From the NCBI RefSeq assembly GCF_004217615.1, contig NZ_SHLD01000001.1, forward strand, positions 4,526,001 through 4,590,000: a DNA stretch of 64,000 bases, written 5' to 3'. Positions 11,251 through 59,831 of the stretch are shown piece after piece (within the stretch, counting starts at the first letter, position 1; each line of letters begins with the position of its first letter). The notes under the pieces were generated by a model. It searched no databases. It saw only the letters and a program-made list of their open reading frames with translations, and had not been told where the DNA came from. The translations under genes were made by a program, and so were the position numbers. This DNA comes from Micromonospora kangleipakensis (GTDB taxonomy: Bacteria; Actinomycetota; Actinomycetes; Mycobacteriales; Micromonosporaceae).

Positions 11251-12081
11251 ATGACGCGGGCGTTGGTGCTGGGTGGTGGCGGCGTGACCGGGGTGGCCTG
11301 GGAGTTGGGGCTGCTGGCCGGGTTGGCGGAGCGGGGGGTGGAGCTGGCCGGGGCGGACCTGGTGGTGGGCACGTCGGCGGGGTCGGTGGTGGGGGCGCAG
11401 CTGTGTTCCGGGGTGCCGGTGGAGGAGTTGTACGCGGCGCAGTTGCGCCCGGCCACGGGTGAGGTGGCGGCCCGGTTCGGGGTGGGTGCGGTGGCGCGGC
11501 TGTTGTGGGCGGGTGGGCGTACCCGGGATGAGGTGCGGTCGCGGGCGCGGATCGGGGCGATGGCGGTGGCGGCGCGGACGCCGTCGGAGGCGTCGCGGCG
11601 GGCGGTGATCGAGGGGCGGTTGCCGGCGCGGGAGTGGCCGGCGCGGCGGCTGCTGGTGACGGCGGTGGACGCGGGCTCGGGTGAGTTCGTGGTGTTCGAC
11701 GCGGCCAGTGGGGTGTCGTTGGTGGAGGCGGTGGGGGCCAGTTGCGCGGTGCCGGGGGTGTGGCCGCCGGTGACGATCGGGGATCGCCGGTACGTCGACG
11801 GTGGGATGCGGTCGGCGGTGAACGCGGACCTGGCGGCGGGCGCTGAGGCGGTGGTGGTGCTGGCGCCGGTGTCGTCGGCGTTCGGGCCGATGCCGAGACT
11901 GTCGACGCAGGTGGCGGCGTTGCGTCGGTCGGCGCGGGTGGCGGTGGTGGCGCCGGACGCGGCGGCCCGTCGGGCGATCGGGCGCAACGTGTTGGATCCG
12001 GCGCGGCGGGCGGGTGCGGCGCGGGCGGGTCGGGCACAGGCGGCGGCGGTGGCCGACGAGGTGGCGGCGGTGTGGGGCTGA
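11251..12081 (+). CDS. Patatin-like phospholipase
   Basis: 276-aa serine lipid hydrolase. The oxyanion-hole glycines (LGGGGVTGVAWELGLLAGL, residues 6-24), the nucleophile elbow GTSAGS near residue 47, and the DGG motif (YVDGGMRSAV) near residue 180 give the Ser-Asp dyad. It probably hydrolyses phospholipids or acylglycerols in the cytoplasm. ATG 11251 follows a GAGAGGA site. It differs clearly from the larger patatin at 50178 and is a housekeeping-type copy. Confidence 0.9.
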   Translation: MTRALVLGGGGVTGVAWELGLLAGLAERGVELAGADLVVGTSAGSVVGAQLCSGVPVEELYAAQLRPATGEVAARFGVGAVARLLWAGGRTRDEVRSRARIGAMAVAARTPSEASRRAVIEGRLPAREWPARRLLVTAVDAGSGEFVVFDAASGVSLVEAVGASCAVPGVWPPVTIGDRRYVDGGMRSAVNADLAAGAEAVVVLAPVSSAFGPMPRLSTQVAALRRSARVAVVAPDAAARRAIGRNVLDPARRAGAARAGRAQAAAVADEVAAVWG

Positions 12082-45835: not shown

Positions 45836-46110
45836 GTATCGCGTCCACTGACGGGTGGGTGAGTCTTGGGCGAAGTTGGTCTTCGGTTCGGCGCGGGCGT
45901 TGCGCCAGCGGACGTAGGCCGCGATCGCGGCGTTCTGCTCCACGTGGGTGCGGTGGTCGTTGCCGTTGAGGGCGAAGTAGCGCAGGATGCGGCGTAGCGT
46001 CTCCCGGCTGATTTTCGGAACCACGTGCCGTTGGACCAGGTGGTCGGCGAGCTTGGACAAGCTCCAGGTGGCAAAGCCGGTCAGGCCCAGTCGGCGGGGG
46101 ACGTCCGGGC
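45836..46110 (-). pseudogene. Degenerate IS630-family transposase
   Basis: Three pieces of one transposase are joined: ICLIARTSPADW (before a frameshift), TWSLSKLADHLVQRHVVPKI with SRETLRRIL (the HTH part), and directly after it YFALNGNDHRTHVEQNAAIA with AAYVRWRNARAEPKTNF, which belongs to the extreme C-terminus. The central catalytic DDE region is deleted and one base is lost near 46078. A dead copy. Confidence 0.75.
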
Positions 46111-46112
46111 GA

Positions 46113-46280
46113 TCAGGCAGATGTGCTCGCGCACCCGCTCACCGATCGTGCTTGGGCGTCTCCCGCTCCGTGGTCGCGCAGGGCGGCGCAGGCGCCGATG
46201 GCCATCACGTCGGTCAGCGCGAACACGCAGGTGGCCGTCAGCCCCCGGGCCAGCAGTTCGCTTAAGCCCCGCTCGACGCG
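46113..46280 (-). pseudogene. Fragment of a LacI-family regulator
   Basis: The frame contains ELLARGLTATCVFALTDVMA followed by IGACAALRDHG, a hallmark of the sugar-binding domain of LacI regulators (AVFALTDVMAIGALAAL). Only about 50 codons remain, next to the IS630 remnant that probably interrupted it. Confidence 0.55.
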
Positions 46281-46399
46281 CCCCCGCCGTCGTCCCACCG
46301 GCCACACCCTGGTCGTACGCGACTCGACCGGCCCCGCTCGGCAACGTCCCGCCAGCGGCTGAAGCCGCCGGCGAGAGTCGGGCCGCATACAGTGACGCA

Positions 46400-46876
46400 A
46401 TGCTGCCGAGGGTGAAGGGCCTGTCCCGGCACTTCACCGAGGAGAGCCTGCGCGCCTACCTGCTCGCCCGCTCCGAACGCCGCGACGACGGCTGCCTGAT
46501 CGTGCGCGGGTACGGCTCCCGCCGCGACGTCCACCAGAAGGTCGCCGGGCGGGCGTGGGCGCACATCGCCGCGTACGCGGTCTTCGTCGGCGGCTACGAC
46601 CCGGCGCTGGACGTCGACCACCGCTGCGCCGCCAGGGACTGCATCGAGCCCACCCACCTGCGTCAGGTCAGCCGCGCGGTGACCTGCCGGGACCGGCGGC
46701 AGGAAGCGCGGTGCCGCAACGGCCACGCCCGGGAGATCGACGAGGTGACCGGGCGCTACCGCCGCGTGTGCCGGACGTGCAACCGGGAGGCTCAGCGGCG
46801 CTGGCGGGACCGTCGGGCCGCCGAGGTCGCCACGGCGAGAGCCACGCACGGTCGCGGCCCGTCGGCCTCCGCTTGA
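46400..46876 (+). CDS. HNH endonuclease
   Basis: 158 aa. The nuclease core is DVDHRCAARDCIEPTHLRQV near residue 73-92 (the DH...N/C...H pattern of phage-type HNH_3 enzymes, with zinc-binding cysteines), followed by CRNGH and VCRTCNREAQRRWRDRRAAE, a typical C-terminal DNA-binding end. It probably nicks or cuts DNA. ATG 46400 lies 6 nt after TACAGT, so it is probably leaderless. It sits in the IS-rich zone and may be of phage or mobile origin. Confidence 0.85.
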   Translation: MLPRVKGLSRHFTEESLRAYLLARSERRDDGCLIVRGYGSRRDVHQKVAGRAWAHIAAYAVFVGGYDPALDVDHRCAARDCIEPTHLRQVSRAVTCRDRRQEARCRNGHAREIDEVTGRYRRVCRTCNREAQRRWRDRRAAEVATARATHGRGPSASA

Positions 46877-49143: not shown

Positions 49144-50130
49144 CCTAGACGAGTAAGTCCTAATCCTGGTCAGTGGTCGTAGGCGATCAAGGACCTGGTC
49201 AGGGGTTGTCCGGTGGTGCGGTTGTGCCAGATGGCGGCGGTCATGGCCAGGAGTCGTTGTGCGACGCGGGCGGCGACGCCTTCGATGCTGCGGCCGCCGT
49301 GTAGCTCGAGGTCGAGCTGGCCCTTGAGCGTGTCGTTGACCGATTCGATGAGTTGCCGGATCGGTTTGAGCAGGTGTTCGTCGGGGCGTGGGGTGCGGTT
49401 GCGGTAGGAGGGTCGTAGCAGCCGCACTCCGCGTTCGGCCAGCCAGCGGTCCAGCTCGGCGGAGACGTAGCCCTTGTCCGCGATGATCAGCAGGCCGGGG
49501 CGTTCGGCCATCAGGTCCGGGTCGTGTTCGAGGACCGCGGTCAACACCTGACGTTCGTCGACTTTCGGGCTGGCCAGGGCCCAGGTGACGGGTAGGCCGG
49601 CCGGGGTGCAGATCAGGTGTAGCCGCAGGCCCCAGAACCAGCGCGAGTGCGACGGGCAGTAGCCGTAGCTGGCCCACCCCGCTAACCATGAGCGGCGCAC
49701 GGTGGGCCGGGACCGGCCGCACTCGACCGGGGTGGAGTCGAGCACCCAGGTCGAGTCGGCCCACAGGTCGGTGTCCGCGGCCACCGCCCGGATCGCCCTC
49801 TTCAGTAGCGGCACGGCGGCTCGTAGGCGCTTGTTGTAGCCGGACTGCCCCGGCAGATAGGGAAACGCTCCGGGCAGATGCGCGGGGACGAACCGCAGCC
49901 AGCGGGCCTCGGACCGAATCCCGAGCAGCACCTGGGTCACCGCCAGGGTCAGCAGCTCAGCATCGGACAGCTTCGGTGGCCGACCGGACCTGCGGGGCCG
50001 CCCCAGCCAGTCGTCGATCTTCACGTACAGTGCGGTGAGAAGGGTGTTGAGGTCTGTCGTCACAAACGGATCATCAACACCCTTCGCTGCGTTCGCAGCC
50101 CCGGACCGACTTAGGAATTACTCGTCTAGG
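49144..50130. mobile_element. IS982-family insertion sequence, apparently intact
   Basis: 987 bp bounded by terminal inverted repeats: the left end starts CCTAGACGAGTAAGTCCTAA and the right end, read inward on the other strand, CCTAGACGAGTAATTCCTAA (19 of 20 identical). It contains one complete transposase. The five bases directly outside the ends differ, so I see no target duplication. It separates the IS481 remnant from the patatin gene. Confidence 0.85.
49170..50063 (-). CDS. IS982-family transposase
   Basis: 297-aa DDE transposase, full length. N-terminus DLNTLLTALYVKIDDWLGRP, LSDAELLTLAVTQVLLGIRS near residue 33, first Asp in WVLDSTPVECGRSRP near 108, second in LLIIADKGYVSAELDRWLAE near 197, and the Glu in LKPIRQLIESVNDTLKGQLD near 233. 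No frameshift or stop is present, so it could be active. Confidence 0.93.
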   Translation of the reverse strand: MTTDLNTLLTALYVKIDDWLGRPRRSGRPPKLSDAELLTLAVTQVLLGIRSEARWLRFVPAHLPGAFPYLPGQSGYNKRLRAAVPLLKRAIRAVAADTDLWADSTWVLDSTPVECGRSRPTVRRSWLAGWASYGYCPSHSRWFWGLRLHLICTPAGLPVTWALASPKVDERQVLTAVLEHDPDLMAERPGLLIIADKGYVSAELDRWLAERGVRLLRPSYRNRTPRPDEHLLKPIRQLIESVNDTLKGQLDLELHGGRSIEGVAARVAQRLLAMTAAIWHNRTTGQPLTRSLIAYDH

Positions 50131-50177: not shown

Positions 50178-51485
50178 TTACCGGGCGGACGCGTCCCGGA
50201 CAGCGAGCTTGAAGTAGTCGCGCATCGCCGTGCGGGCCCGCTCGACTGATTGTTTGATCACCTCATCGGGCGGGGAGAACTCGATCAGGTCGAGCCCTTC
50301 GGTGTTCAACTCGACGGTCTGCAGCCGGTACCGCTCGGTGACCTGTGATTCTCCGGTGCCGAACACCCCGAACTTCCCAACCGCCGCGAGCATCTGTCCG
50401 ATGTCCGTGATCGCGGGTGGGGACTCCGGGACGACATCCAATCGCAGCGCGAGGGTGTGCGAACGCTCCGGCTGGTTGGCGGCAGCAGCCCGTGGCTTCT
50501 CGGTCGGCTCATCGTCGAACTCCCGGAAGGGCAGGTTGTTCCACACGCCGCCGTCGACATAGGTTCCCGGGGCAGGCCAGCCGTCCCGGGCCGGACCGTC
50601 GATGACGTACGGCTTGAAGATGAACGGAAGACCCATGGAGATCCGGACCGCGTCGGCAACCGGGAAGTCGGGCGTATGGTCGGGCGAGAAGATCTGTGTG
50701 GCGCCGGTGGTGAGATTCGTGCCGGTGACGAGCAGCTTCGCGCCCCGCGGTCCCGCCAGCAGTTGCCGGAAGGTGGTGTGGCGCCCCGGAATCCCGCTGG
50801 CGTTCCTCATCTTGTTGCCGAGCAGGGTGTCCAGCGTGTCGCGGGCACGCGAGCCGGAGAACACGCCCATGTCCCGGCTGAGATAGGCGACGTACTCCGG
50901 CCACTGCGCTCTGAGCAGCCGCACCAGCCGCTTGTCCTTGTTCTCCGTCAGCACGTCGTCCAGCTTCTTGGCGTACTTGCCCACCCACGCCTTCAGTGCG
51001 AGGTAGAGCATTGCGCCGACCGGGCAGAACAAACCGCTGGTCATGACCGCGTCCATTCCCCACTCCAGGACGACGTGCTTCCGCAGGACGGAAATCAGCT
51101 TCCGTTCCTCGTCCGAGTCGGTTACCTGCCGGTACGGTCCGCCGACGACAGGCACGAGCCGTGGGGTCGACGACTCGAAGAAGTCCTCGAAGGAATCGAT
51201 GGAGACGCCCGGAACGCTTCCCGGCCGCTTCATGAATTCCCGGATCTCGTCCACGGTGTAACCGGCGGCGAGCAGCATCGCGGTGATCGCGCCGGCGGAG
51301 GCGCCCCCGTACCCCACCACGTGGTCGAAGACATCATGTTCACGCAGGACGTCAAGGGCTCCGAGGTACGCGAAGCCCTTGCCGCCGCCCCCTTCGAATA
51401 CCAGGTAGTTGATGTCGGCGGGGCGCAGGCGGGTACGGATCCGGCCGGGTGCCGTGGGCACCGGCTGCAGCAGCTGGCCGTTCAT
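50178..51485 (-). CDS. Large patatin-like phospholipase
   Basis: 435 aa. Oxyanion loop GGGGKG at residues 32-37, nucleophile elbow GASAG with Ser63, and the catalytic DGG at residues 311-313 (TYVDGGVWNNLPF). Between them lies an insertion of roughly 130 residues compared with minimal patatins, with ESSTPRLVPVVGGPYRQVTD and YLALKAWVGKYAKKLDDVLT. No signal peptide. It should hydrolyse lipids in the cytoplasm. Its ATG overlaps the stop of the 871-aa gene by 4 nt (ATGA), so the two are co-translated. Patatins are effectors in some anti-phage systems and secreted toxins; that is context, not evidence. Confidence 0.9.
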   Translation of the reverse strand: MNGQLLQPVPTAPGRIRTRLRPADINYLVFEGGGGKGFAYLGALDVLREHDVFDHVVGYGGASAGAITAMLLAAGYTVDEIREFMKRPGSVPGVSIDSFEDFFESSTPRLVPVVGGPYRQVTDSDEERKLISVLRKHVVLEWGMDAVMTSGLFCPVGAMLYLALKAWVGKYAKKLDDVLTENKDKRLVRLLRAQWPEYVAYLSRDMGVFSGSRARDTLDTLLGNKMRNASGIPGRHTTFRQLLAGPRGAKLLVTGTNLTTGATQIFSPDHTPDFPVADAVRISMGLPFIFKPYVIDGPARDGWPAPGTYVDGGVWNNLPFREFDDEPTEKPRAAAANQPERSHTLALRLDVVPESPPAITDIGQMLAAVGKFGVFGTGESQVTERYRLQTVELNTEGLDLIEFSPPDEVIKQSVERARTAMRDYFKLAVRDASAR

Positions 51486-54097
51486 GAGGCCGTGGGTGGG
51501 GCCGGGATCGCCGGGTGCGGGTTGACCGGCAACCCGGCGTCTGCAAGGCACACCGACTCGGTCGGCAGGCGAACCTCCCACGAGCTGCCCACCGGCACGC
51601 CGCCACGCGCCGGCCCGGACAGTGCCTGAACCTCGTCGGCGATGGACAGGTAGCCGGGCGCGTCCGGCGCCGGGGCGCCCAGACCGCCCCACGGAATGAG
51701 CGTATGGACGTAGAAGTTGACCTGGTCCTCGTACCCCGGTCTCGTCGGGACGACGACCCGCGCGGAGCCCGCCCTCAGGAAGGCCGCGAACAGGGCGTCC
51801 GCGCCGGTGATGTCGGCCAGGTCGGGCCAACGGTCGGCGTTGGCCCAGAAGTAGGGATAGAACACGTAGCGTAGGTTCTCCCATTCGAATGCCTGTTCCA
51901 GGAACATCACCTCGTCCCGGGGCGGCTTGCTCACGTCGAGCCAGGGACCTTTCTCGTCCCCCGCCCAGGGATCCGGCGAGGCGGCCGGGGATTGGCCGCT
52001 CAGCAGGGTCAGGACATGTTTCTTCAGCTCGGTTCGCTCGACCTCGCGGGCTCGCGCGGGGCTCATCCCGGAGATGTCGATGCCCGCCCGAATGGAGCTG
52101 GCCGCCAGTTCCTGCAGATGTTCCTGGAGCTTGAGGTCGTAGGCGCCCCGGATCACCTCATACGTGGCCTGTCTCCACCGCTGAATCGCCGCCGCGGTTG
52201 GTTCACAGATCAGTTCTACGTTGATCACGTACCCGTACGGTGCGTCGAGCATGACCGCGACCGGCACCGTGCCCGATGAGATCGGCCCGACCGCCCCGTT
52301 GGAGATCTGCGTAACCAGCGCGCTGCCCTTCGCGGTGGTGCCAACGGCGGCTGCCTGACCCGCCCCGACCGATATGGTGATGCTCAGCTGCTCCTGCCAC
52401 TCCGGGAAGTGCCCGTCATGCCACGCCAGGACCGCGGCTCGCCATGACTTGGCCCTCCACCCGGCCGGCACCGTCAGCGTGTTCTGGCTGTTCCACTCCA
52501 GCGTCCACTCGTTCTTCGGCTCGACGATGACCGGAATGCCGTCCTTTTCCTGCTTCAACGGCGGGTACCGACTGATGACGGTGGCCACCGTCTGGTCGGC
52601 TGGGACGGGTTCGAGCCCGGTCGCGCCGTACCGGGCCGCGTACTTCAAATACGTGTCGGTGTTCGGGTTGATGTCCGCGGGTGTCAGCTCCGGGTTGGTG
52701 TCCGACTTCGGCTTGGCGTCCGCGGTGAACGGGTCGGGGCGTGTCGTGATCAATCCCTTGCCCTGGCGGCTCTTGTCCAGCCACCGCCACCATGCAGCCG
52801 GCTCTGGCACGAGGAACTCCAGCAGGAAGCGGTTGGGGTACCGCAGCACGCGCAGCCGGCGTACCTGCTCAACCCAGCGGTAGATGCCGACGATCGGCTC
52901 GTCCTCGGTGTTGTCGAGGCCGTGCCGGTTGGTTTCGGTGATCCGCGTAAATGTCCGGGTGACGCGGACGGTACGGGTGCGCTCCGACACCTTGCTGACC
53001 GACCGACTCACGATCTCCTTCGCCGTCTTGTACGCGGTCTGCTCGGCCTCGGCCAGGGATCCGTCCACGGTCGCGGCGAGATGCGTCTTGACGTTCGTCG
53101 GGCCGTACTGCCCGGTGGTGTCCACGCTCAGCTCGCCCTCGAACGCCAGCTCGCTTTCCCGCTGTGTCTGGCGGCTGAACTCGCCACGGTCGGTCTGCTG
53201 CGTGTCGACCTCGGTTTCAGTGGTCCGCTCCGTGTCGGTTGTCGTGGTCTGCTCAGTCTCGGTTTCACGGCGATGGACGCGCTTCTTCGACTCGTGCGGC
53301 AGCACGTTTTCGATGTGGGCGATCTCGGCGGCCTCGTAACGGTTCCACTCGTCCTCGACGACGTAGTAGTCCGAGACGGCAGGCGTACGTGCGAGCTTGC
53401 TGCTCCGCAGCAGGCCGGCTTCAGTCCGCTCAGTCCGCTCGGGATATCGGCTCAGCCAGGTCGGCAGCAACACCTTGCGCCGGTGCAGCGCCCACCAGAC
53501 CTCGGCGCCCGTGTCCGTCTCCGGCTTGCCGGTGCCCTTCTCGCCGGCGCCGTCGCGCTCGGTCGCCGGTCGGCGGGGTCGCAGGACGAGCTCCGCCAAC
53601 CCTCCGACCAGGAGAAGACGGTTCAGCGCCGGTGGTACGGCGGGATCGGCATCGGGCACCAGCATTGCCACGACGAGACTCGCTCCGATCTCCGCCCGGA
53701 TCCCGGCCCAAATCTCGGTGCCGGACGAGTCCCGCTTGGATGCGATGTCCCGGTGGGCGAGCCGGGTGAGCACGTCGGCGTCCCGGTGGGCGAGCCAGGC
53801 GAGCACCTCGGCACGGCTCACCCGGTCCGCGCGTTCCCTGAGCCATCGCGACAGTTCCCAGATCGGTAGGTCCGCGTCGGGTTCTGGCGGCTTGAAGTGG
53901 CCGGCGGCCAGGAAATTCGCACAGATGGCCTGCACCGATTCGCTGTGGTGGGCATCGGCGAGCTCGGTGAGTACCTGTGGTGTTGCCGCGCCCGGCGGGA
54001 CGAGAGGGATGGTGGTGTCGGGTTGCGGCTCGACCTTCTGCGCGTCTCGGACCAAGGTGAAACGGACAAGTTCCGGCACGCCACTCACCTTCTTCAT
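51482..54097 (-). CDS. 871-aa protein of unknown family, partner of the patatin
   Basis: No named domain recognised. Visible regions: a helical N-terminus (1-170); a basic/acidic linker (175-200); EWNRYEAAEIAHIENVLPHE at 250-269; a Thr/Glu-rich, probably coiled-coil stretch at 277-320; a helical GSLAEAEQTAYKTAKEIVSR region; IVGIYRWVEQVRRLRVLRYP near 402; a central beta-rich part with an LVPEPAAWW motif (429-437); and a C-terminal domain with LRYVFYPYFWANADRWPDLA and ARVVVPTRPGYEDQVNFYVH near 745-790. No signal peptide or membrane helix. I have the impression of similar large proteins near phage-tail-like clusters, but cannot verify it. ATG 54097, with GAGGCG upstream; base composition is slightly lower in GC than neighbours. 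Confidence 0.85.
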   Translation of the reverse strand: MKKVSGVPELVRFTLVRDAQKVEPQPDTTIPLVPPGAATPQVLTELADAHHSESVQAICANFLAAGHFKPPEPDADLPIWELSRWLRERADRVSRAEVLAWLAHRDADVLTRLAHRDIASKRDSSGTEIWAGIRAEIGASLVVAMLVPDADPAVPPALNRLLLVGGLAELVLRPRRPATERDGAGEKGTGKPETDTGAEVWWALHRRKVLLPTWLSRYPERTERTEAGLLRSSKLARTPAVSDYYVVEDEWNRYEAAEIAHIENVLPHESKKRVHRRETETEQTTTTDTERTTETEVDTQQTDRGEFSRQTQRESELAFEGELSVDTTGQYGPTNVKTHLAATVDGSLAEAEQTAYKTAKEIVSRSVSKVSERTRTVRVTRTFTRITETNRHGLDNTEDEPIVGIYRWVEQVRRLRVLRYPNRFLLEFLVPEPAAWWRWLDKSRQGKGLITTRPDPFTADAKPKSDTNPELTPADINPNTDTYLKYAARYGATGLEPVPADQTVATVISRYPPLKQEKDGIPVIVEPKNEWTLEWNSQNTLTVPAGWRAKSWRAAVLAWHDGHFPEWQEQLSITISVGAGQAAAVGTTAKGSALVTQISNGAVGPISSGTVPVAVMLDAPYGYVINVELICEPTAAAIQRWRQATYEVIRGAYDLKLQEHLQELAASSIRAGIDISGMSPARAREVERTELKKHVLTLLSGQSPAASPDPWAGDEKGPWLDVSKPPRDEVMFLEQAFEWENLRYVFYPYFWANADRWPDLADITGADALFAAFLRAGSARVVVPTRPGYEDQVNFYVHTLIPWGGLGAPAPDAPGYLSIADEVQALSGPARGGVPVGSSWEVRLPTESVCLADAGLPVNPHPAIPAPPTAS

Positions 54098-54235
54098 CGA
54101 TCGAGAGGCGACATATTGAGGTTCGACGGCCGGTTACGCAAAGTCAAGGAGGGAGTACAACTCGCGACAGTGATCGCAGGGGCGTGGCGCACACGAGGCG
54201 CCAGGCTCGCGGCTACCGAGGGGAAGATTGAGCCG

Positions 54236-54760
54236 TGAGCTCGCACTGTTCGGCGAGAGGCCGGGCGGCGGATGCTGGCTGCCGCGTTGGAGGCGGAGGT
54301 TGACGCCAATCTGGCCGAGTTGGCCGACGAACGTGTGACGAGCGGGGTCGGCGTCTGGTGGTGCGTAACGGTCACACGCAGCCTCGGCAGATGATGACCG
54401 TGGCCGGTGCGGTAGAGGTGACCGCGCCGCAGGTCAATGACAAGTGGGTCGATGCGGAGACCGGGCAGCGCAAGCGGTTCCGGTCGGTGGTCTTGCCGCC
54501 GTGGTGCCGCAAGTCGCCGAAGGTGGTCGAGGTGGTGGCGTTGCTGTATCTGCACGGGCTGTCGACCGGCGACTTCGTACCCGCGCTGGAGTCGTTCCTG
54601 GGCTCGGCCGCCGGGCTGTCGTCGGCGACGATCACGCGGCTGACCAAGCAGTGGGGCGATGACTACCACGCCTTCTGCGCTCGGGACGTGTCGCAGGTCG
54701 ACTACGTCTACGTCTGGACCGACGGGGTGCACGTCACAGCCACGCCGGGCCGGTCGGCTC
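54236..54760 (+). pseudogene. Truncated IS256-family (mutator) transposase
   Basis: RMLAAALEAEVDANLAELAD, then a frameshift, then VVRNGHTQPRQMMTVAGAVE, VTAPQVNDKWVDAETGQRKR, LLYLHGLSTGDFVPALESFL and QVDYVYVWTDGVHV, which holds the first catalytic Asp. The remaining two thirds are lost and the frame continues into unrelated bases. Bases 54098-54235 are the upstream region of the 871-aa gene and contain TTGACT on its strand, a possible -35 element. Confidence 0.85.
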
Positions 54761-54871
54761 GATCACCACGCCGTCGGGTCCGCCGCCAAATTCCCTCACC
54801 CGAGGCGGGTGGCGAGCTGGCCCCGCGTACGCGACAGTGGAGCAGTCGTCAGGCCCGGGGAGGTTTCCGCC

Positions 54872-57145
54872 ATGCCGGTCCCAATCCACAATTCCCGTCC
54901 CGTCCCACGCCCCTCCGGGCAGCTGCCCCCGGGCGTCGACCTGACGGGAGTGACGGAGCTGCGGCTGCACGGGGTCGGCGGGATCCGGCCGGAGACTCTG
55001 CTCGCCGACCTGGCCCCACAGCTGGTGGCCGGTGACCAGGCTGCCGGCTTCTACCGCACTGCCGACCTCAACGGGCGGCATGTGGAGGCGTACTCGTGGG
55101 GGGCGCTTGCCGTCCGCAGCGCGGTACGCCTGCTGTGGCTGCTGCTACTGCCGTTTGCGATGGTCAACGTCGCCGGCTGGATGTGCACCCCCGCGACCTG
55201 GCGCAGTCGGTGGCGCTTCCTGCTGCACCGCGCGGTGCTCCGGGTGGCCGCGCTTGCCATGACGCTCAACCTGGTCCTGCTGGCCGCCATGACCGCAATG
55301 GACGTGATGGCCTACCAGTGCGGCGCGCGCGACACCTGTGTCGACCACTGGTGGCTGCGGTGGCTGCGATGGGGACCACTGGCCGACCACCCGGGTTGGC
55401 GGGTCCTCGCCGGAGCGGCCATTCCGCTGCTGCTCGTCCTCGGTCTCGCCCTGCTAGGCGGACGACAGTGGACACCCTACGAGAGCGTCCAGCCGCCCCG
55501 GGGGGTGGGCGACGCCTCGCGGCCACCGCTGGTCACGTCGGCGCGGCCCGGCGTTGGTCTCGGCCACCCGTATTTCTGGCACGGCAAGAGCATCGGCCTC
55601 GGCGTGCTGCATCTGGCGGTTGCCATGGCGTTCCTGGCCTGGCTCACCGGACACACCGTCGGCGCCGCCGTACGGGAGGCGGGGCAGGTGGCACATTCAC
55701 CTGGCTGGCACACCGCGACGGTGCTCGCGGCCCTCGTCACGCTGATCGGCGCGGTGGTCCTGCTAGCCTCCGACCGTCCCCCGGTACGTCTGCTGTGGCC
55801 CTTCGCGCTGCTGGCGGTCCTGCTGTCCGGGATGCTCTCCGCCGGTTGCGCGGCGGTCTTCGCGATGCGTCAGCCGCTCGGACCGGGTGGTACCGGACCG
55901 CTTCCGGGCATGTCGACGGCGGTGGACGGCTGCTACGGCGTCCTCGTCGCGGTCGTGCTTGCTGTGTTGGTGTCGGGCCTGGTCACCCGGCGACGTGGAG
56001 AGGGACCCCGCGCGCTGCTCCTGCCGTTCGCGGCGGTCGCCGCCGGCGGCGTGCTGCTCAACGGCGTCGGCACCGGCGTGATGATCCGCGTGGCTGACCT
56101 GCTCGGCGACGTCCCCCACCCGGCGGCGCGCCCTGACCGGTCGAACGCCCTGATGATCCACGACCGGGTCTACGCGCTCGTCCCGTACCTCACCCTCCTG
56201 CCGCTCGCCGTGCTGGCCGGCCTCGCCGTGGTGGGCGGTCTGGCCTGGTGGCGTGGCGGGGGACGACGAGCGCGGCGGGCGGTCCGCGACGAGTACGGCG
56301 CCATGAGCGCGGACGTGAACGACTGGAGCATCAACGCGGCCGACACAGGCCTGAGCACACTCCGCCGCTCCTGGGAGGCCCGCATCGCCCGTGCCCGATG
56401 GGCCGCCAGGGTGGATGCCGGAACGGCCTTCGTCACGGTCACCCTCGCGCTGCTCGTCGGCCTCGCATACGGGGCGCTCGACATTTGGGTCTACCACCGC
56501 ACGCCTCCGACACCGCTGCTCGCCACGTCCACCTTCCTGGCCACGGCCGCCCCGCTCGGTCTGCTGCTGCTGGTCCGGCGAGGCTGGCAGGGGCTGGACA
56601 GCCGCCGCCGCCTGGGGATCGTGTGGGACGTCAGCACCTTCTGGCCGCGCGCCTACCATCCCCTCGCCCCACCGCCATACACCGCCCGTGCGGTGCCCGA
56701 CCTTCAACGCCGGCTCTGGAGACTCCATGACGCGGGGGGGCGTGCTGTGGTGGTGGCGCACAGCCAGGGCAGCGTCATCGCTCTCGCCGCGCTGCTGCAG
56801 GAGAGCCACCGGCCCGCGCACGACCAGGTCGCGCTGGTCACCTTCGGATGTCCGTTCCGCAAGCTATACGGTTCGATCTTCCCGGCCTACTTCGGGGACG
56901 GGGTGATCGGCGCGGGCCGGCCGCGGGTCTGGCGGTGGCGAAACTTCTTCTATGACACCGATCCCGTCGGCGGTCCGGTCCAGCGCGGCGACTGTCTTGA
57001 CGGCGTCGACGAGCGGTTGCCCGATCCGGACACCCCCTGGTACGACTACGGGTCGGAGCCACCTCGGCCACGCGGGCACGGCGGCTACTGGACCGACCCG
57101 CGGGTCTGGGCGCTCGTCAACCACTACGCGTTCGAGCTGACCTGA
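54872..57145 (+). CDS. Multi-pass membrane protein with C-terminal serine hydrolase (lipase-like) domain
   Basis: 757 aa. The N-terminal 70 residues contain GVTELRLHGVGGIRPETLLA, an oxyanion-type HGVGG strand. About ten or eleven membrane helices fill residues 75-580. The C-terminal cytoplasmic domain has the nucleophile elbow VVVAHSQGSVIALAALLQES (Ser near 631), VALVTFGCPFRKLYGSIFPA and a terminal WALVNHYAF that may give the histidine. The hydrolase halves are thus separated by the whole membrane region. The substrate is probably a membrane lipid. ATG 54872 with GGGGAGG 8 nt upstream. It points away from the patatin operon, across an IS256 remnant. Confidence 0.85.
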   Translation: MPVPIHNSRPVPRPSGQLPPGVDLTGVTELRLHGVGGIRPETLLADLAPQLVAGDQAAGFYRTADLNGRHVEAYSWGALAVRSAVRLLWLLLLPFAMVNVAGWMCTPATWRSRWRFLLHRAVLRVAALAMTLNLVLLAAMTAMDVMAYQCGARDTCVDHWWLRWLRWGPLADHPGWRVLAGAAIPLLLVLGLALLGGRQWTPYESVQPPRGVGDASRPPLVTSARPGVGLGHPYFWHGKSIGLGVLHLAVAMAFLAWLTGHTVGAAVREAGQVAHSPGWHTATVLAALVTLIGAVVLLASDRPPVRLLWPFALLAVLLSGMLSAGCAAVFAMRQPLGPGGTGPLPGMSTAVDGCYGVLVAVVLAVLVSGLVTRRRGEGPRALLLPFAAVAAGGVLLNGVGTGVMIRVADLLGDVPHPAARPDRSNALMIHDRVYALVPYLTLLPLAVLAGLAVVGGLAWWRGGGRRARRAVRDEYGAMSADVNDWSINAADTGLSTLRRSWEARIARARWAARVDAGTAFVTVTLALLVGLAYGALDIWVYHRTPPTPLLATSTFLATAAPLGLLLLVRRGWQGLDSRRRLGIVWDVSTFWPRAYHPLAPPPYTARAVPDLQRRLWRLHDAGGRAVVVAHSQGSVIALAALLQESHRPAHDQVALVTFGCPFRKLYGSIFPAYFGDGVIGAGRPRVWRWRNFFYDTDPVGGPVQRGDCLDGVDERLPDPDTPWYDYGSEPPRPRGHGGYWTDPRVWALVNHYAFELT

Positions 57146-58117: not shown

Positions 58118-59146
58118 TCACAAGCCGACGTCGGTGAGGGCGTTGTCCTCCCACTGGTCGGCATCCTCGATGTAGCCGGCGAGGGTAGCGGAGCCGTCCT
58201 TCCACCCGCCGTGCCGGGCGATTCGCAGTGGGTTCTTGCCCTGCCGGTGGGTCTCCGTGGCGAACCCGCGGCGCAGGGAGTGTCCGGAGAAGGCGGAGGC
58301 GGCGTTCAGGCCGGCCCGGAGTGCGGTGCGGCGGACGATGATGGCGACGGCCTGGCCCGTGATGCGGCCGCTGGTTTCTCCGCGCCCGTGCGGTGCCCGG
58401 CCGAGGTTGCCGTGCCGGTCGACGCGTCGGAACACCGGTCCGGACGTCTCCCCGCGAGCAGCGAGGGCATCCAGCCATGCCTGCATGGTGCGTACGGGGC
58501 AGGTGGCCGGTCGGGATGTGTAGGGAAGGGCGGTGGTGCGGCCCACGGATTCTTTGTCGGTCTTGGAGCGACGGATGGTGACCTGCAGGCCGTCGTCGGT
58601 GAAGGTGAGGTCGGCGATGTTGAGCGCCGCGAGTTCGCTTCGCCGAGCGCCCAGCGCGAAGCCGACCACGATGAGGGCGCGGTCGCGCACCCCTGCGATG
58701 GTGGAGACGTCGAGGGTGTCGACCATCGCCCGCAGCGCCGTGATGGTCATGGCCTTGGCCTTGCGCACTCCCCGGCCACCCTCGGCGAGTTCGGCCCGGT
58801 GCCGGCGCAGGACGGCGCGGGCCGCTCGGGTGTTGGGTGACGGGAGGTCGGCGCTGGCGTGGGCGACGGTGATGGCCGCCATGGCGCGCTCGATCGTGGA
58901 CGAGGCCTTACCGCCGTCGGCCAGATGTGAGACATACTCGGCCAGGGTTGCTCCGGTGGCCGGCAGGTGGGATCGTTGTTTTTCGATGCACCAGAGGGTG
59001 AACCGACTCCAGTCGCCGGCATAGGCTCGCCTCGTGGACGCGGGCACGGACTCGCGGATCCGGCGCCGCGCGGACTCCGAGAGGTGTTCGTTCGGAGCGA
59101 TCGACTCGACGTATTCGGCACTCCCCTGCGCCGCAATCTCATTCAC
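58118..59146 (-). CDS. Tyrosine integrase
   Basis: 342 aa. N-terminal SAM-like domain (SVPASTRRAYAGDWSRFTLW near residue 35, ATGATLAEYVSHLADGGKAS), catalytic Arg in GFALGARRSELAALNIADLT near 165, HSLRRGFATETHRQGKNPLR near 290, then RHGGWKDGSATLAGYIEDAD with Tyr near 325. It looks like integrases of integrative elements and plasmids rather than XerC/D. GTG 59146 lies 8 nt after TAAGGT and inside an inverted repeat, so I prefer it as a leaderless start over TTG 59155. It marks the right edge of the accessory zone. Confidence 0.9.
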   Translation of the reverse strand: MNEIAAQGSAEYVESIAPNEHLSESARRRIRESVPASTRRAYAGDWSRFTLWCIEKQRSHLPATGATLAEYVSHLADGGKASSTIERAMAAITVAHASADLPSPNTRAARAVLRRHRAELAEGGRGVRKAKAMTITALRAMVDTLDVSTIAGVRDRALIVVGFALGARRSELAALNIADLTFTDDGLQVTIRRSKTDKESVGRTTALPYTSRPATCPVRTMQAWLDALAARGETSGPVFRRVDRHGNLGRAPHGRGETSGRITGQAVAIIVRRTALRAGLNAASAFSGHSLRRGFATETHRQGKNPLRIARHGGWKDGSATLAGYIEDADQWEDNALTDVGL

Positions 59147-59171
59147 GAGAAGCAACCTTATCGTGAATGAG
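59138..59171. promoter_or_regulatory. Perfect 11-bp inverted repeat over the integrase start
   Basis: CTCATTCACGA (59138-59148) and TCGTGAATGAG (59161-59171), separated by 12 nt, cover the integrase start codon and its -10 box. It may be an operator for autoregulation or the core of an attachment site; arm length suits tyrosine recombinases, the spacer is longer than usual. Confidence 0.65.
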
Positions 59172-59300
59172 CGACAGGCGTCCGCCGACTCGCCGCCACG
59201 GGTCGCTCTGCCCGGCTGCCGCGGTTCGGGAACTGTGGGCGCGACGGGCTACCGTCCACTACGGTCGTCTCCCTCCCCCACATCGAGAGGACGGTTCCGC

Positions 59301-59831
59301 ATGGACACCTTCGAGGGCATCCGCGTCTACGCCGCCGGAAAGATCACCAAGAACGGGTGGCGGCACACCCTGTTCCCCGTCGTCGACGACGCCGACTACG
59401 AGAACCCCGACCAGACGCCCTGGTCGGCGGAGGCTCGGATCGCCAGCCTCCCCGGCGCCGTGTACGTCGGCCCGCACTTCATGAGCGACGACCACGGCTG
59501 CTACCACGGCGAGAACAGCCATGGTGTCGCCGCCGGTGACATCGCCTGCGCCGCCTACCCCGGCCTGTCCCGGCCCGAGGTGAGCCGGCGATGCCTGGAC
59601 GCGATCCGCTCGGCCACCCACCTGTTCACGTGGATCGACGACCCGACCTGCCACGGCAGCCTCGTGGAGATCGGCTACGCGCGGGCGTTGGGGAAGCAGG
59701 TCTACGTGTACATGCAGACCGGGCGGAAGGAGCTCGAGGATCTGTGGTTCGCCGGGCAGATCGCCACCGCCCACGGTGAGGCGGCCACCGCCGAGCAGGC
59801 GTGGGCCGACTTCCGGCTGCGGCTGAGATGA
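59301..59831 (+). CDS. Nucleoside 2-deoxyribosyltransferase-like protein
   Basis: 176 aa. RVYAAGKITKNGW at residues 8-20 is the usual first strand and loop, and ATHLFTWIDDPTCHGSLVEI near 105-124 followed by GYARALGKQVYVYM is the family signature, with Glu123 in the position of the catalytic nucleophile and Asp-Asp before it. A long insertion (residues 25-85, with HGCYHGENSH) is not part of minimal enzymes. The family transfers deoxyribose between bases or hydrolyses nucleotides. ATG 59301 follows GAGAGGACG. Divergent from the integrase; it may be element cargo. Confidence 0.82.
   Translation: MDTFEGIRVYAAGKITKNGWRHTLFPVVDDADYENPDQTPWSAEARIASLPGAVYVGPHFMSDDHGCYHGENSHGVAAGDIACAAYPGLSRPEVSRRCLDAIRSATHLFTWIDDPTCHGSLVEIGYARALGKQVYVYMQTGRKELEDLWFAGQIATAHGEAATAEQAWADFRLRLR

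What the first reader, a model, noticed from the sequence alone, without database searches (positions are those of the whole stretch)
50178..57145. Lipase-rich island: patatin plus 871-aa partner, and a facing-away membrane serine hydrolase
Two different serine lipid hydrolases lie within 7 kb, one translationally coupled (ATGA) to a very large protein of no recognised family, all inside a zone of IS remnants. Seen: catalytic motifs GASAG/DGG and AHSQGS, the overlap, and the bracketing IS982 and IS5/integrase. Inference: the patatin is a membrane-attacking effector with the 871-aa protein as sensor, carrier or regulator, possibly a defence or toxin-delivery module; the membrane hydrolase may be a partner or an immunity/lipid-repair function.
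Basis: partly seen in the sequence, partly recalled or inferred. Interest (0 to 1): 0.8.

Follow-up and report, generated by a model that had tools for sequence, protein, structure and literature searches.

The report
Widespread carrier protein with swappable enzymes
A soil-type bacterium carries a large unnamed protein whose gene overlaps that of a fat-cutting enzyme; relatives of the large protein in many bacteria and some archaea sit beside quite different enzymes and toxin-like genes, which suggests an undescribed protein-delivery or weapon system with exchangeable parts.

Summary
The two-gene pair is real. A 435-aa patatin phospholipase (50178-51485, -) starts inside the stop codon (ATGA) of an 871-aa protein (51482-54097, -) that has no significant match in Pfam, NCBIfam, PHROGs, PADLOC or PDB sequences. 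The large protein belongs to a family found in many bacterial phyla and some archaea. In 34 of 42 family groups a same-strand gene starts within 100 nt downstream; upstream, 9 of 39. That gene varies: patatin, protein-arginine deiminase, phospholipase D, pretoxin-TG protein, M23 peptidase, mostly unknown. Searching from the patatin found five relatives elsewhere: four have the large protein directly upstream, the fifth lies at a contig end. So the pair is conserved, although no other sampled genome of its own bacterial family has this patatin. The facing membrane hydrolase is not part of it: 72 of 101 sampled genus genomes carry relatives. The upstream remnant is Mutator/IS256, not IS5. Best reading: an exported or lysis-released carrier delivering a swappable enzyme. 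Pore-former-like shape is only weakly supported. Neither protein shows a signal peptide, and the genome lacks contractile-sheath genes, so an intracellular sensor-effector system remains the main rival.

The parts
51482..54097 (-). 871-aa carrier/partner protein (conserved core about residues 237-868); no named family
   Evidence: no significant family or PDB sequence match; relatives; AF2 model, mean pLDDT 79.7
50178..51485 (-). patatin-like phospholipase, 435 aa, Ser63/Asp311 dyad; overlaps the carrier by 4 nt
   Evidence: PF01734 E 2e-32; motifs kept in the full-length carrier-linked relatives aligned; junction
51482..51485 (-). ATGA stop-start overlap (translational coupling, inferred)
   Evidence: a GTGA overlap at the same place in L127
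52598..53416 (-). carrier residues 228-500: long beta strands, Thr/Ser/charged stalk and hairpin tip
   Evidence: shape only; not significant as a fold match
49170..50063 (-). DDE transposase (IS982-like) just downstream of the pair; context, not part of the module
   Evidence: PF01609, PF13612
54319..54735 (+). Mutator/IS256 transposase remnant just upstream of the pair; context, not part of the module
   Evidence: PF00872
54872..57145 (+). membrane protein with AHSQGS serine-hydrolase motif; judged NOT part of the module
   Evidence: relatives in 72 of 101 genus genomes, up to 5 matches per genome; start corrected

Best explanation
The pair is one example of a two-gene module: a conserved large carrier protein and, directly downstream and often overlapping, a gene for one interchangeable enzyme or toxin; here the enzyme is a patatin phospholipase. 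SHOWN by comparison: the conserved pairing, the same-strand downstream position, the exchange of downstream enzymes, and intact patatin catalytic motifs. INDICATED by simple hydropathy: no Sec-type signal on either protein of this pair. INFERRED: the two proteins bind each other, and the carrier leaves the cell by lysis or an unidentified route and places the enzyme on or in a target cell's membrane, where the patatin cuts phospholipids. The carrier would work like the binding/translocation component of a binary toxin, using its Thr/Ser-rich long beta strands and hairpin tip. In this strain the module looks recently acquired, between two insertion sequences.
For: 34 of 42 carrier groups have a same-strand gene within 100 nt downstream, against 9 of 39 upstream (Fisher p 1.7e-7). 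Downstream genes include patatin, PAD, PLD, PT-TG and M23. Patatin is the downstream gene in 5 of 42 groups (in one, L109, the carrier is frame-broken and the gap to its first piece is 163 nt); the chance is about 7e-11 at this genome's rate of 4 patatin places per an assumed 6500 genes. On the carrier tree the patatin label needs at least 4 changes, 3 of them forced by supported branches. Patatin-first searches found one plasmid hit (next to a carrier) and four hits in 3 of 250 genomes. Three of those four have a carrier directly upstream on the same strand; the fourth starts at a contig end. The PADLOC scan of 114 neighbours matched phospholipase models only, at E<=1e-5.
Confidence: 0.5

Rival explanations
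1. Intracellular defence or suicide module: the large protein senses infection or damage inside the cell and switches on the coupled effector (patatin, PLD, others), which damages the cell's own membrane or contents.
For: A constant large protein with a variable effector is also the layout of sensor-effector defence systems. Little sign of Sec export: 2 of 84 carriers and 0 of 65 downstream proteins have a hydrophobic 12-mer in their first 45 residues; with a limit of 120 residues it is 5 of 84 and 3 of 65. Patatin effectors are known in CBASS (recalled), and this patatin partly matches PADLOC phospholipase effectors and NCBIfam DS2_1_antiphage and CBASS_lipase, all far below cut-off.
Against: Among 114 neighbouring proteins (of 159 candidates; 124 fit the limit, 10 more dropped by me) PADLOC hits were phospholipases only, the commonest model in 4 members, so no defence-island setting was seen. 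Arginine deiminase, PT-TG and M23 peptidase are not typical abortive-infection effectors (recalled). No known sensor domain is recognised in the 871-aa protein.
Confidence: 0.27
2. Cargo of a contractile injection system (eCIS or T6SS), with the large protein as adaptor or spike-linked part.
For: 17 of 40 carrier genomes searched have a PF04984 sheath match, 14 over the cut-off, and 5 of 40 have a T6SS sheath (PF05943). The Chryseobacterium carriers are mostly followed by a tail-fibre-like protein (my reading of one sequence). Effectors of such systems often lack Sec signals (recalled).
Against: The window's own complete genome has neither PF04984 nor PF05943. 23 of 40 carrier genomes have no PF04984 match. 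Such matches also come from ordinary prophages. No carrier in 50,697 phage records.
Confidence: 0.08
3. An ordinary lipid-handling or envelope pair: the large protein is a scaffold for housekeeping enzymes, with no target organism.
For: Patatins are often housekeeping lipases (recalled); this genome has 3 other patatin places.
Against: Patchy distribution (carrier relatives in 30 of 300 genomes of the family), exchange of unrelated enzymes, IS neighbours and low G+C.
Confidence: 0.15

Closest known systems
Clostridial-type binary toxins (CDTb/CDTa, iota Ib/Ia)
   Same: Separate genes for a large beta-rich component and an enzyme; best though weak Foldseek matches of the 871-aa model.
   Different: No Pfam match at E<=1, no N-terminal hydrophobic signal, no meaningful superposition; the enzymes are unrelated and exchangeable.
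Polymorphic toxin systems (Zhang et al. 2012, PMC3482391; passages seen)
   Same: Constant delivery part with exchangeable toxin parts; PT-TG, peptidase and (by eye) nuclease- and HExxH-like downstream proteins.
   Different: The exchangeable part is usually a separate downstream gene, not a fused C-terminus; the constant part has no significant match in the libraries searched; no immunity gene seen next to the window pair.
Patatin-like effectors (Legionella VpdC; CBASS and other anti-phage phospholipases)
   Same: Patatin family with Ser/Asp dyad; partial HMM matches.
   Different: Scores 93 of 1000 (VpdC), 26 of 400 (DS2_1) and 22 of 200 (CBASS) bits against the curated cut-offs; its two flanking genes are the carrier and a transposase.
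Aerolysin/lysenin-type pore-forming toxins
   Same: Long antiparallel strands with an inserted tip in the domain model; among the most frequent names in its 44-row Foldseek list.

Membership tests
Patatin-like phospholipases (PF01734) | Pfam score over the gathering cut-off | tested here: met
   113.4 bits against 27.7
Patatin-like phospholipases (PF01734) | GxSxG and DG[GA] catalytic dyad with glycine-rich oxyanion loop | tested here: met
   GASAG, DGG and GGGGKG; the motifs recur in the full-length carrier-linked relatives aligned
Clostridial-type binary toxin B components | sequence match to the family's Pfam models | tested here: not met
   no Pfam family at E<=1; no PDB sequence match at E<=10
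Clostridial-type binary toxin B components | PA/CDTb-like fold and heptameric pore | tested here: inconclusive
   Foldseek E 9e-4, prob 0.44, TM 0.08; the VIA rows shown cover the jelly roll 500-634
Clostridial-type binary toxin B components | adjacent gene for a separate enzyme component | tested here: met
Clostridial-type binary toxin B components | N-terminal secretion signal | tested here: not met
   no hydrophobic 12-mer in the first 120 residues of the window protein (simple hydropathy, not a signal-peptide program)
CBASS patatin effectors | score over the curated NCBIfam cut-off | tested here: not met
   22.1 bits against 200
CBASS patatin effectors | adjacent CD-NTase | tested here: not met
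   the 871-aa partner has no PADLOC or Pfam match; the gene on the patatin's other side is a transposase
Polymorphic toxin systems | constant part with exchangeable toxin parts | tested here: inconclusive
   exchange of downstream genes met; that they are toxins is not shown: 8 of 32 downstream proteins scanned had a Pfam match over cut-off, one of them (PPK2) 294 nt away
Polymorphic toxin systems | immunity gene next to the toxin | tested here: inconclusive
   none seen beside the window pair; small genes follow in Chryseobacterium loci, not tested as immunity genes
Polymorphic toxin systems | known secretion route or leader domain | tested here: inconclusive
   no known domain in the carrier and no N-terminal signal; routes other than the two sheath types were not tested
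Contractile injection (eCIS/T6SS) cargo | sheath gene in the same genome | tested here: not met
   no PF04984 and no PF05943 match in G000; 17 of 40 and 5 of 40 carrier genomes have one

The most novel reading that the evidence does not exclude
The 871-aa protein founds a new, cross-domain family of stand-alone toxin or effector carriers (bacteria and archaea, no secretion apparatus), to which unrelated enzymes - phospholipases, protein-arginine deiminases, peptidases and others - are matched through an overlapping or directly following gene and are exchanged in evolution: a binary-toxin-like principle reached with a protein family not yet named.
Probability: 0.35. Interest if true: 0.82.

Novelty: new variant of a known kind. 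Interest (0 to 1): 0.63.

Why it matters
A large family with no significant match in any family library searched here, shared by bacteria and archaea, would become readable as the constant half of an exchangeable enzyme-delivery or effector system. It gives a rule for finding new effectors (look directly downstream), offers a possible role for some bacterial protein-arginine deiminases, and can be tested with two genes in laboratory E. coli.

Tried and rejected
Rejected: membrane hydrolase as partner. Rejected: IS5 upstream (it is PF00872). Rejected for this strain: contractile injection. Not supported: phage carriage (0 of 50,697 phage records; 2 loci in IMG/VR). Weakened: defence island.

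Tentative: within the closest clade, patatin and carrier trees disagree (patatin: window with L127, 99/97; carrier: window with L002, 91/94). This may be partner exchange, but the carrier branch is not starred.

Caveats of counts: the ORF caller is mine and crude in high-G+C DNA. The 84 loci are all 57 genome-contig loci, 20 stretches chosen by me from the 30 matching family genomes, 6 of the 14 plasmid records (three more fetched later are not in the count) and the window. In one search the stops of L021 and L111 were misread; I replaced them. The tree left out L050 and L101 and kept at most 4 loci per group (2 for Chryseobacterium). One search excluded the L128 fragment. A2 used 45 of 56 available fragments (11 Chryseobacterium loci, judged redundant, left out). 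A1 used 80 of the 120 listed proteins. The hydropathy test starts from the longest ORF and can miss a signal behind an over-extended start: by eye, the protein downstream of carrier L095 has a signal-like stretch that the test did not flag. The defence-type phospholipase with the strongest PADLOC match (1.8e-60) was not identified.

Full report
WHAT IS THERE. The window lies at 4526001-4590000 of a single-contig 7.27-Mb genome. On the - strand an 871-aa ORF (51482-54097) ends in TGA inside the ATGA that starts a 435-aa patatin (50178-51485). The 568-aa version of the patatin ORF is an over-extension. The patatin scores 113.4 bits against a cut-off of 27.7 and keeps the oxyanion loop, Ser63 (GASAG) and Asp311 (DGG). 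The 871-aa protein matches nothing in Pfam, PHROGs or PADLOC at E<=1, only one NCBIfam model at E 0.11 far below its cut-off, and no PDB sequence at E<=10.

SURROUNDINGS. G+C of the pair is 0.671 against 0.736 for window 8-48 kb. Of 300 genomes of the same bacterial family, only the window's own holds this patatin at E<=1e-20; the same is true of 394 class genomes. Relatives of the large protein occur in 30 of the 300, own genome included. I infer recent acquisition.

THE FACING HYDROLASE IS SEPARATE. The + strand protein (likely start 54872) has matches at E<=1e-30 in 72 of 101 sampled genus genomes, the own genome included, with up to 5 matches in a genome. It is a paralogous genus family, not a partner.

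THE LARGE PROTEIN IS A WIDESPREAD FAMILY. A protein search found 140 relatives at E<=1e-3 among the 7997 candidates scored. A scan of genome contigs gave 57 loci whose records name Actinomycetota, Pseudomonadota, Bacteroidota, Verrucomicrobiota, desulfobacterial groups, Polyangium, an acidobacterium, Silvanigrellales and a Methanosaeta bin. 14 of 72,556 plasmid records match, including a haloarchaeon and a cyanobacterium; no phage record of 50,697 does; two IMG/VR contigs do. The shared core is about residues 237-868.

THE DOWNSTREAM GENE IS CONSERVED IN POSITION AND VARIABLE IN KIND. I took 84 loci (57 genome contigs, 20 unnamed-genome stretches, 6 plasmids, the window) and grouped the carriers at 55% identity into 43 groups. 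A same-strand gene begins within 100 nt downstream in 34 of 42 testable groups; the same rule upstream gives 9 of 39 (Fisher p 1.7e-7). Patatin is the downstream gene in 5 groups: Methylobacter (L002), Flavobacteriales (L012), Phaeodactylibacter (L015), the haloarchaeon Natronorubrum bangense (L109, annotated as patatin) and the window. In L109 the carrier is frame-broken: a small annotated CDS that overlaps the patatin by 4 nt reads as the carrier's missing C-terminus, so by the 100-nt rule L109 counts as a miss. Other downstream proteins carry protein-arginine deiminase (L009 and relatives), phospholipase D (L020, L107), pretoxin-TG (L008, L089) and M23 peptidase (L102) domains; L007 has a PPK2 gene 294 nt away that I do not count as cargo. 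Most (24 of the 32 downstream proteins scanned in those calls) have no Pfam match over the cut-off; nuclease-like and HExxH motifs in L013, L019 and L010 are my reading by eye. Chryseobacterium loci have a tail-fibre-like protein (by eye), a 159-aa protein, and a large protein with variable ends. In two Micromonosporaceae groups conserved unknown genes lie upstream instead. On a tree of 55 carriers the patatin label needs at least 4 changes (3 forced by starred branches), PAD 2, PLD 2 and PT-TG 2; patatin is as scattered as in 51 of 500 label shuffles. I read this as exchange of enzymes between carrier lineages.

REVERSE TEST FROM THE PATATIN. Searching with the patatin alone, blind to the carrier, gave one plasmid hit at E<=1e-15, the Natronorubrum patatin beside its carrier, and four hits in 3 of 250 genomes from the family of Nonomuraea sp. 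G32. Three of those four have a carrier directly upstream on the same strand (L127 with a GTGA overlap, L129, L130); the fourth begins at a contig end and cannot be judged. So 4 of 4 testable relatives are paired. The 263 relatives of the protein search include 81%- and 62%-identical ones on metagenome contigs that I could not fetch. A Streptomyces patatin (P0137) and carrier (P0025) share a contig length and source name; their adjacency was not checked. The genome has 4 patatin-domain places in all; with an assumed 6500 genes, 5 of 42 by chance has a probability of about 7e-11.

MECHANISM. Best reading: the large protein carries, protects or positions the enzyme made from the overlapping gene, and the two act on another cell's membrane; the patatin would cut phospholipids. 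Pairing and exchange are shown; binding, release and action are inferred. Neither protein of the pair looks exported by Sec; across the family, 2 of 84 carriers and 0 of 65 downstream proteins have a hydrophobic 12-mer in their first 45 residues, 5 and 3 within 120, and one downstream protein (L095) has a signal-like stretch that the test missed. The own genome has neither a phage/eCIS-type sheath nor a T6SS sheath. Release by lysis, an unknown route, or an intracellular role must therefore be considered. The chief rival is an intracellular sensor with exchangeable effectors. Against it, 114 neighbouring proteins of carrier loci gave no PADLOC match at E<=1e-5 except phospholipases, and arginine deiminases and M23 peptidases are unusual for such systems (recalled).

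COMPARISON WITH THE KNOWN. It works like a binary toxin or a polymorphic toxin system but cannot be filed as a member of the first: the sequence match and the secretion signal were tested and not met, and the fold is inconclusive. Passages of the 2012 polymorphic-toxin survey (PMC3482391) list delivery routes, none of which I could match to this carrier from those passages; the words patatin and arginine deiminase do not occur in the held text (first 300,000 characters). A paper on the origin of animal arginine deiminases (PMC8826395, passages) treats bacterial enzymes but does not use the words operon, neighborhood or toxin. My literature searches are named in Tried and rejected.

VERDICT. 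Function is unproven. The finding deserves follow-up as a widespread carrier family with exchangeable enzymes.

Noticed in passing
window 11251-12081 +: A second patatin-domain gene (PF01734, 4.5e-25 at G000:C1:4537263-4537835) lies in the window; the genome has four patatin places in all.
   Followed up: no
L090-L095, L097, L099 (Micromonosporaceae): Carriers of two subgroups mostly lack the downstream gene but have conserved unknown proteins upstream (clusters 23 and 36, about 560 and 520 aa); the one member of each scanned had no Pfam match.
   Followed up: partly
L024-L056 (Chryseobacterium): Many carriers are followed by a tail-fibre-like protein (by eye), a 159-aa protein and a large protein with variable ends and small genes after it; some carriers are about 150 aa longer and followed by a 112-130-aa gene, one of which has a nucleotidyltransferase match below cut-off.
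   Followed up: partly
L009, L011, L014, L021, L032, L038, L051, L058: Protein-arginine deiminase relatives sit directly downstream of carriers in Pseudomonadota, Verrucomicrobiota and Actinomycetota; the PAD domain was scanned in L009 and found in 3 members of a pooled scan, the rest assigned by similarity clustering.
   Followed up: partly
window 46025-46876 +: Protein with a weak HNH_3 match (2.5e-5, just under the cut-off) near the IS zone.
   Followed up: no
window 59034-59831 +: Nucleoside 2-deoxyribosyltransferase-like C-terminus (1.5e-6, just under the cut-off), near the IS zone.
   Followed up: no
window 54872-57145 +: A multi-copy family of membrane serine-hydrolase-like proteins in this genus (72 of 101 genomes, up to 5 matches per genome) with no Pfam match over the cut-off.
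   Followed up: partly
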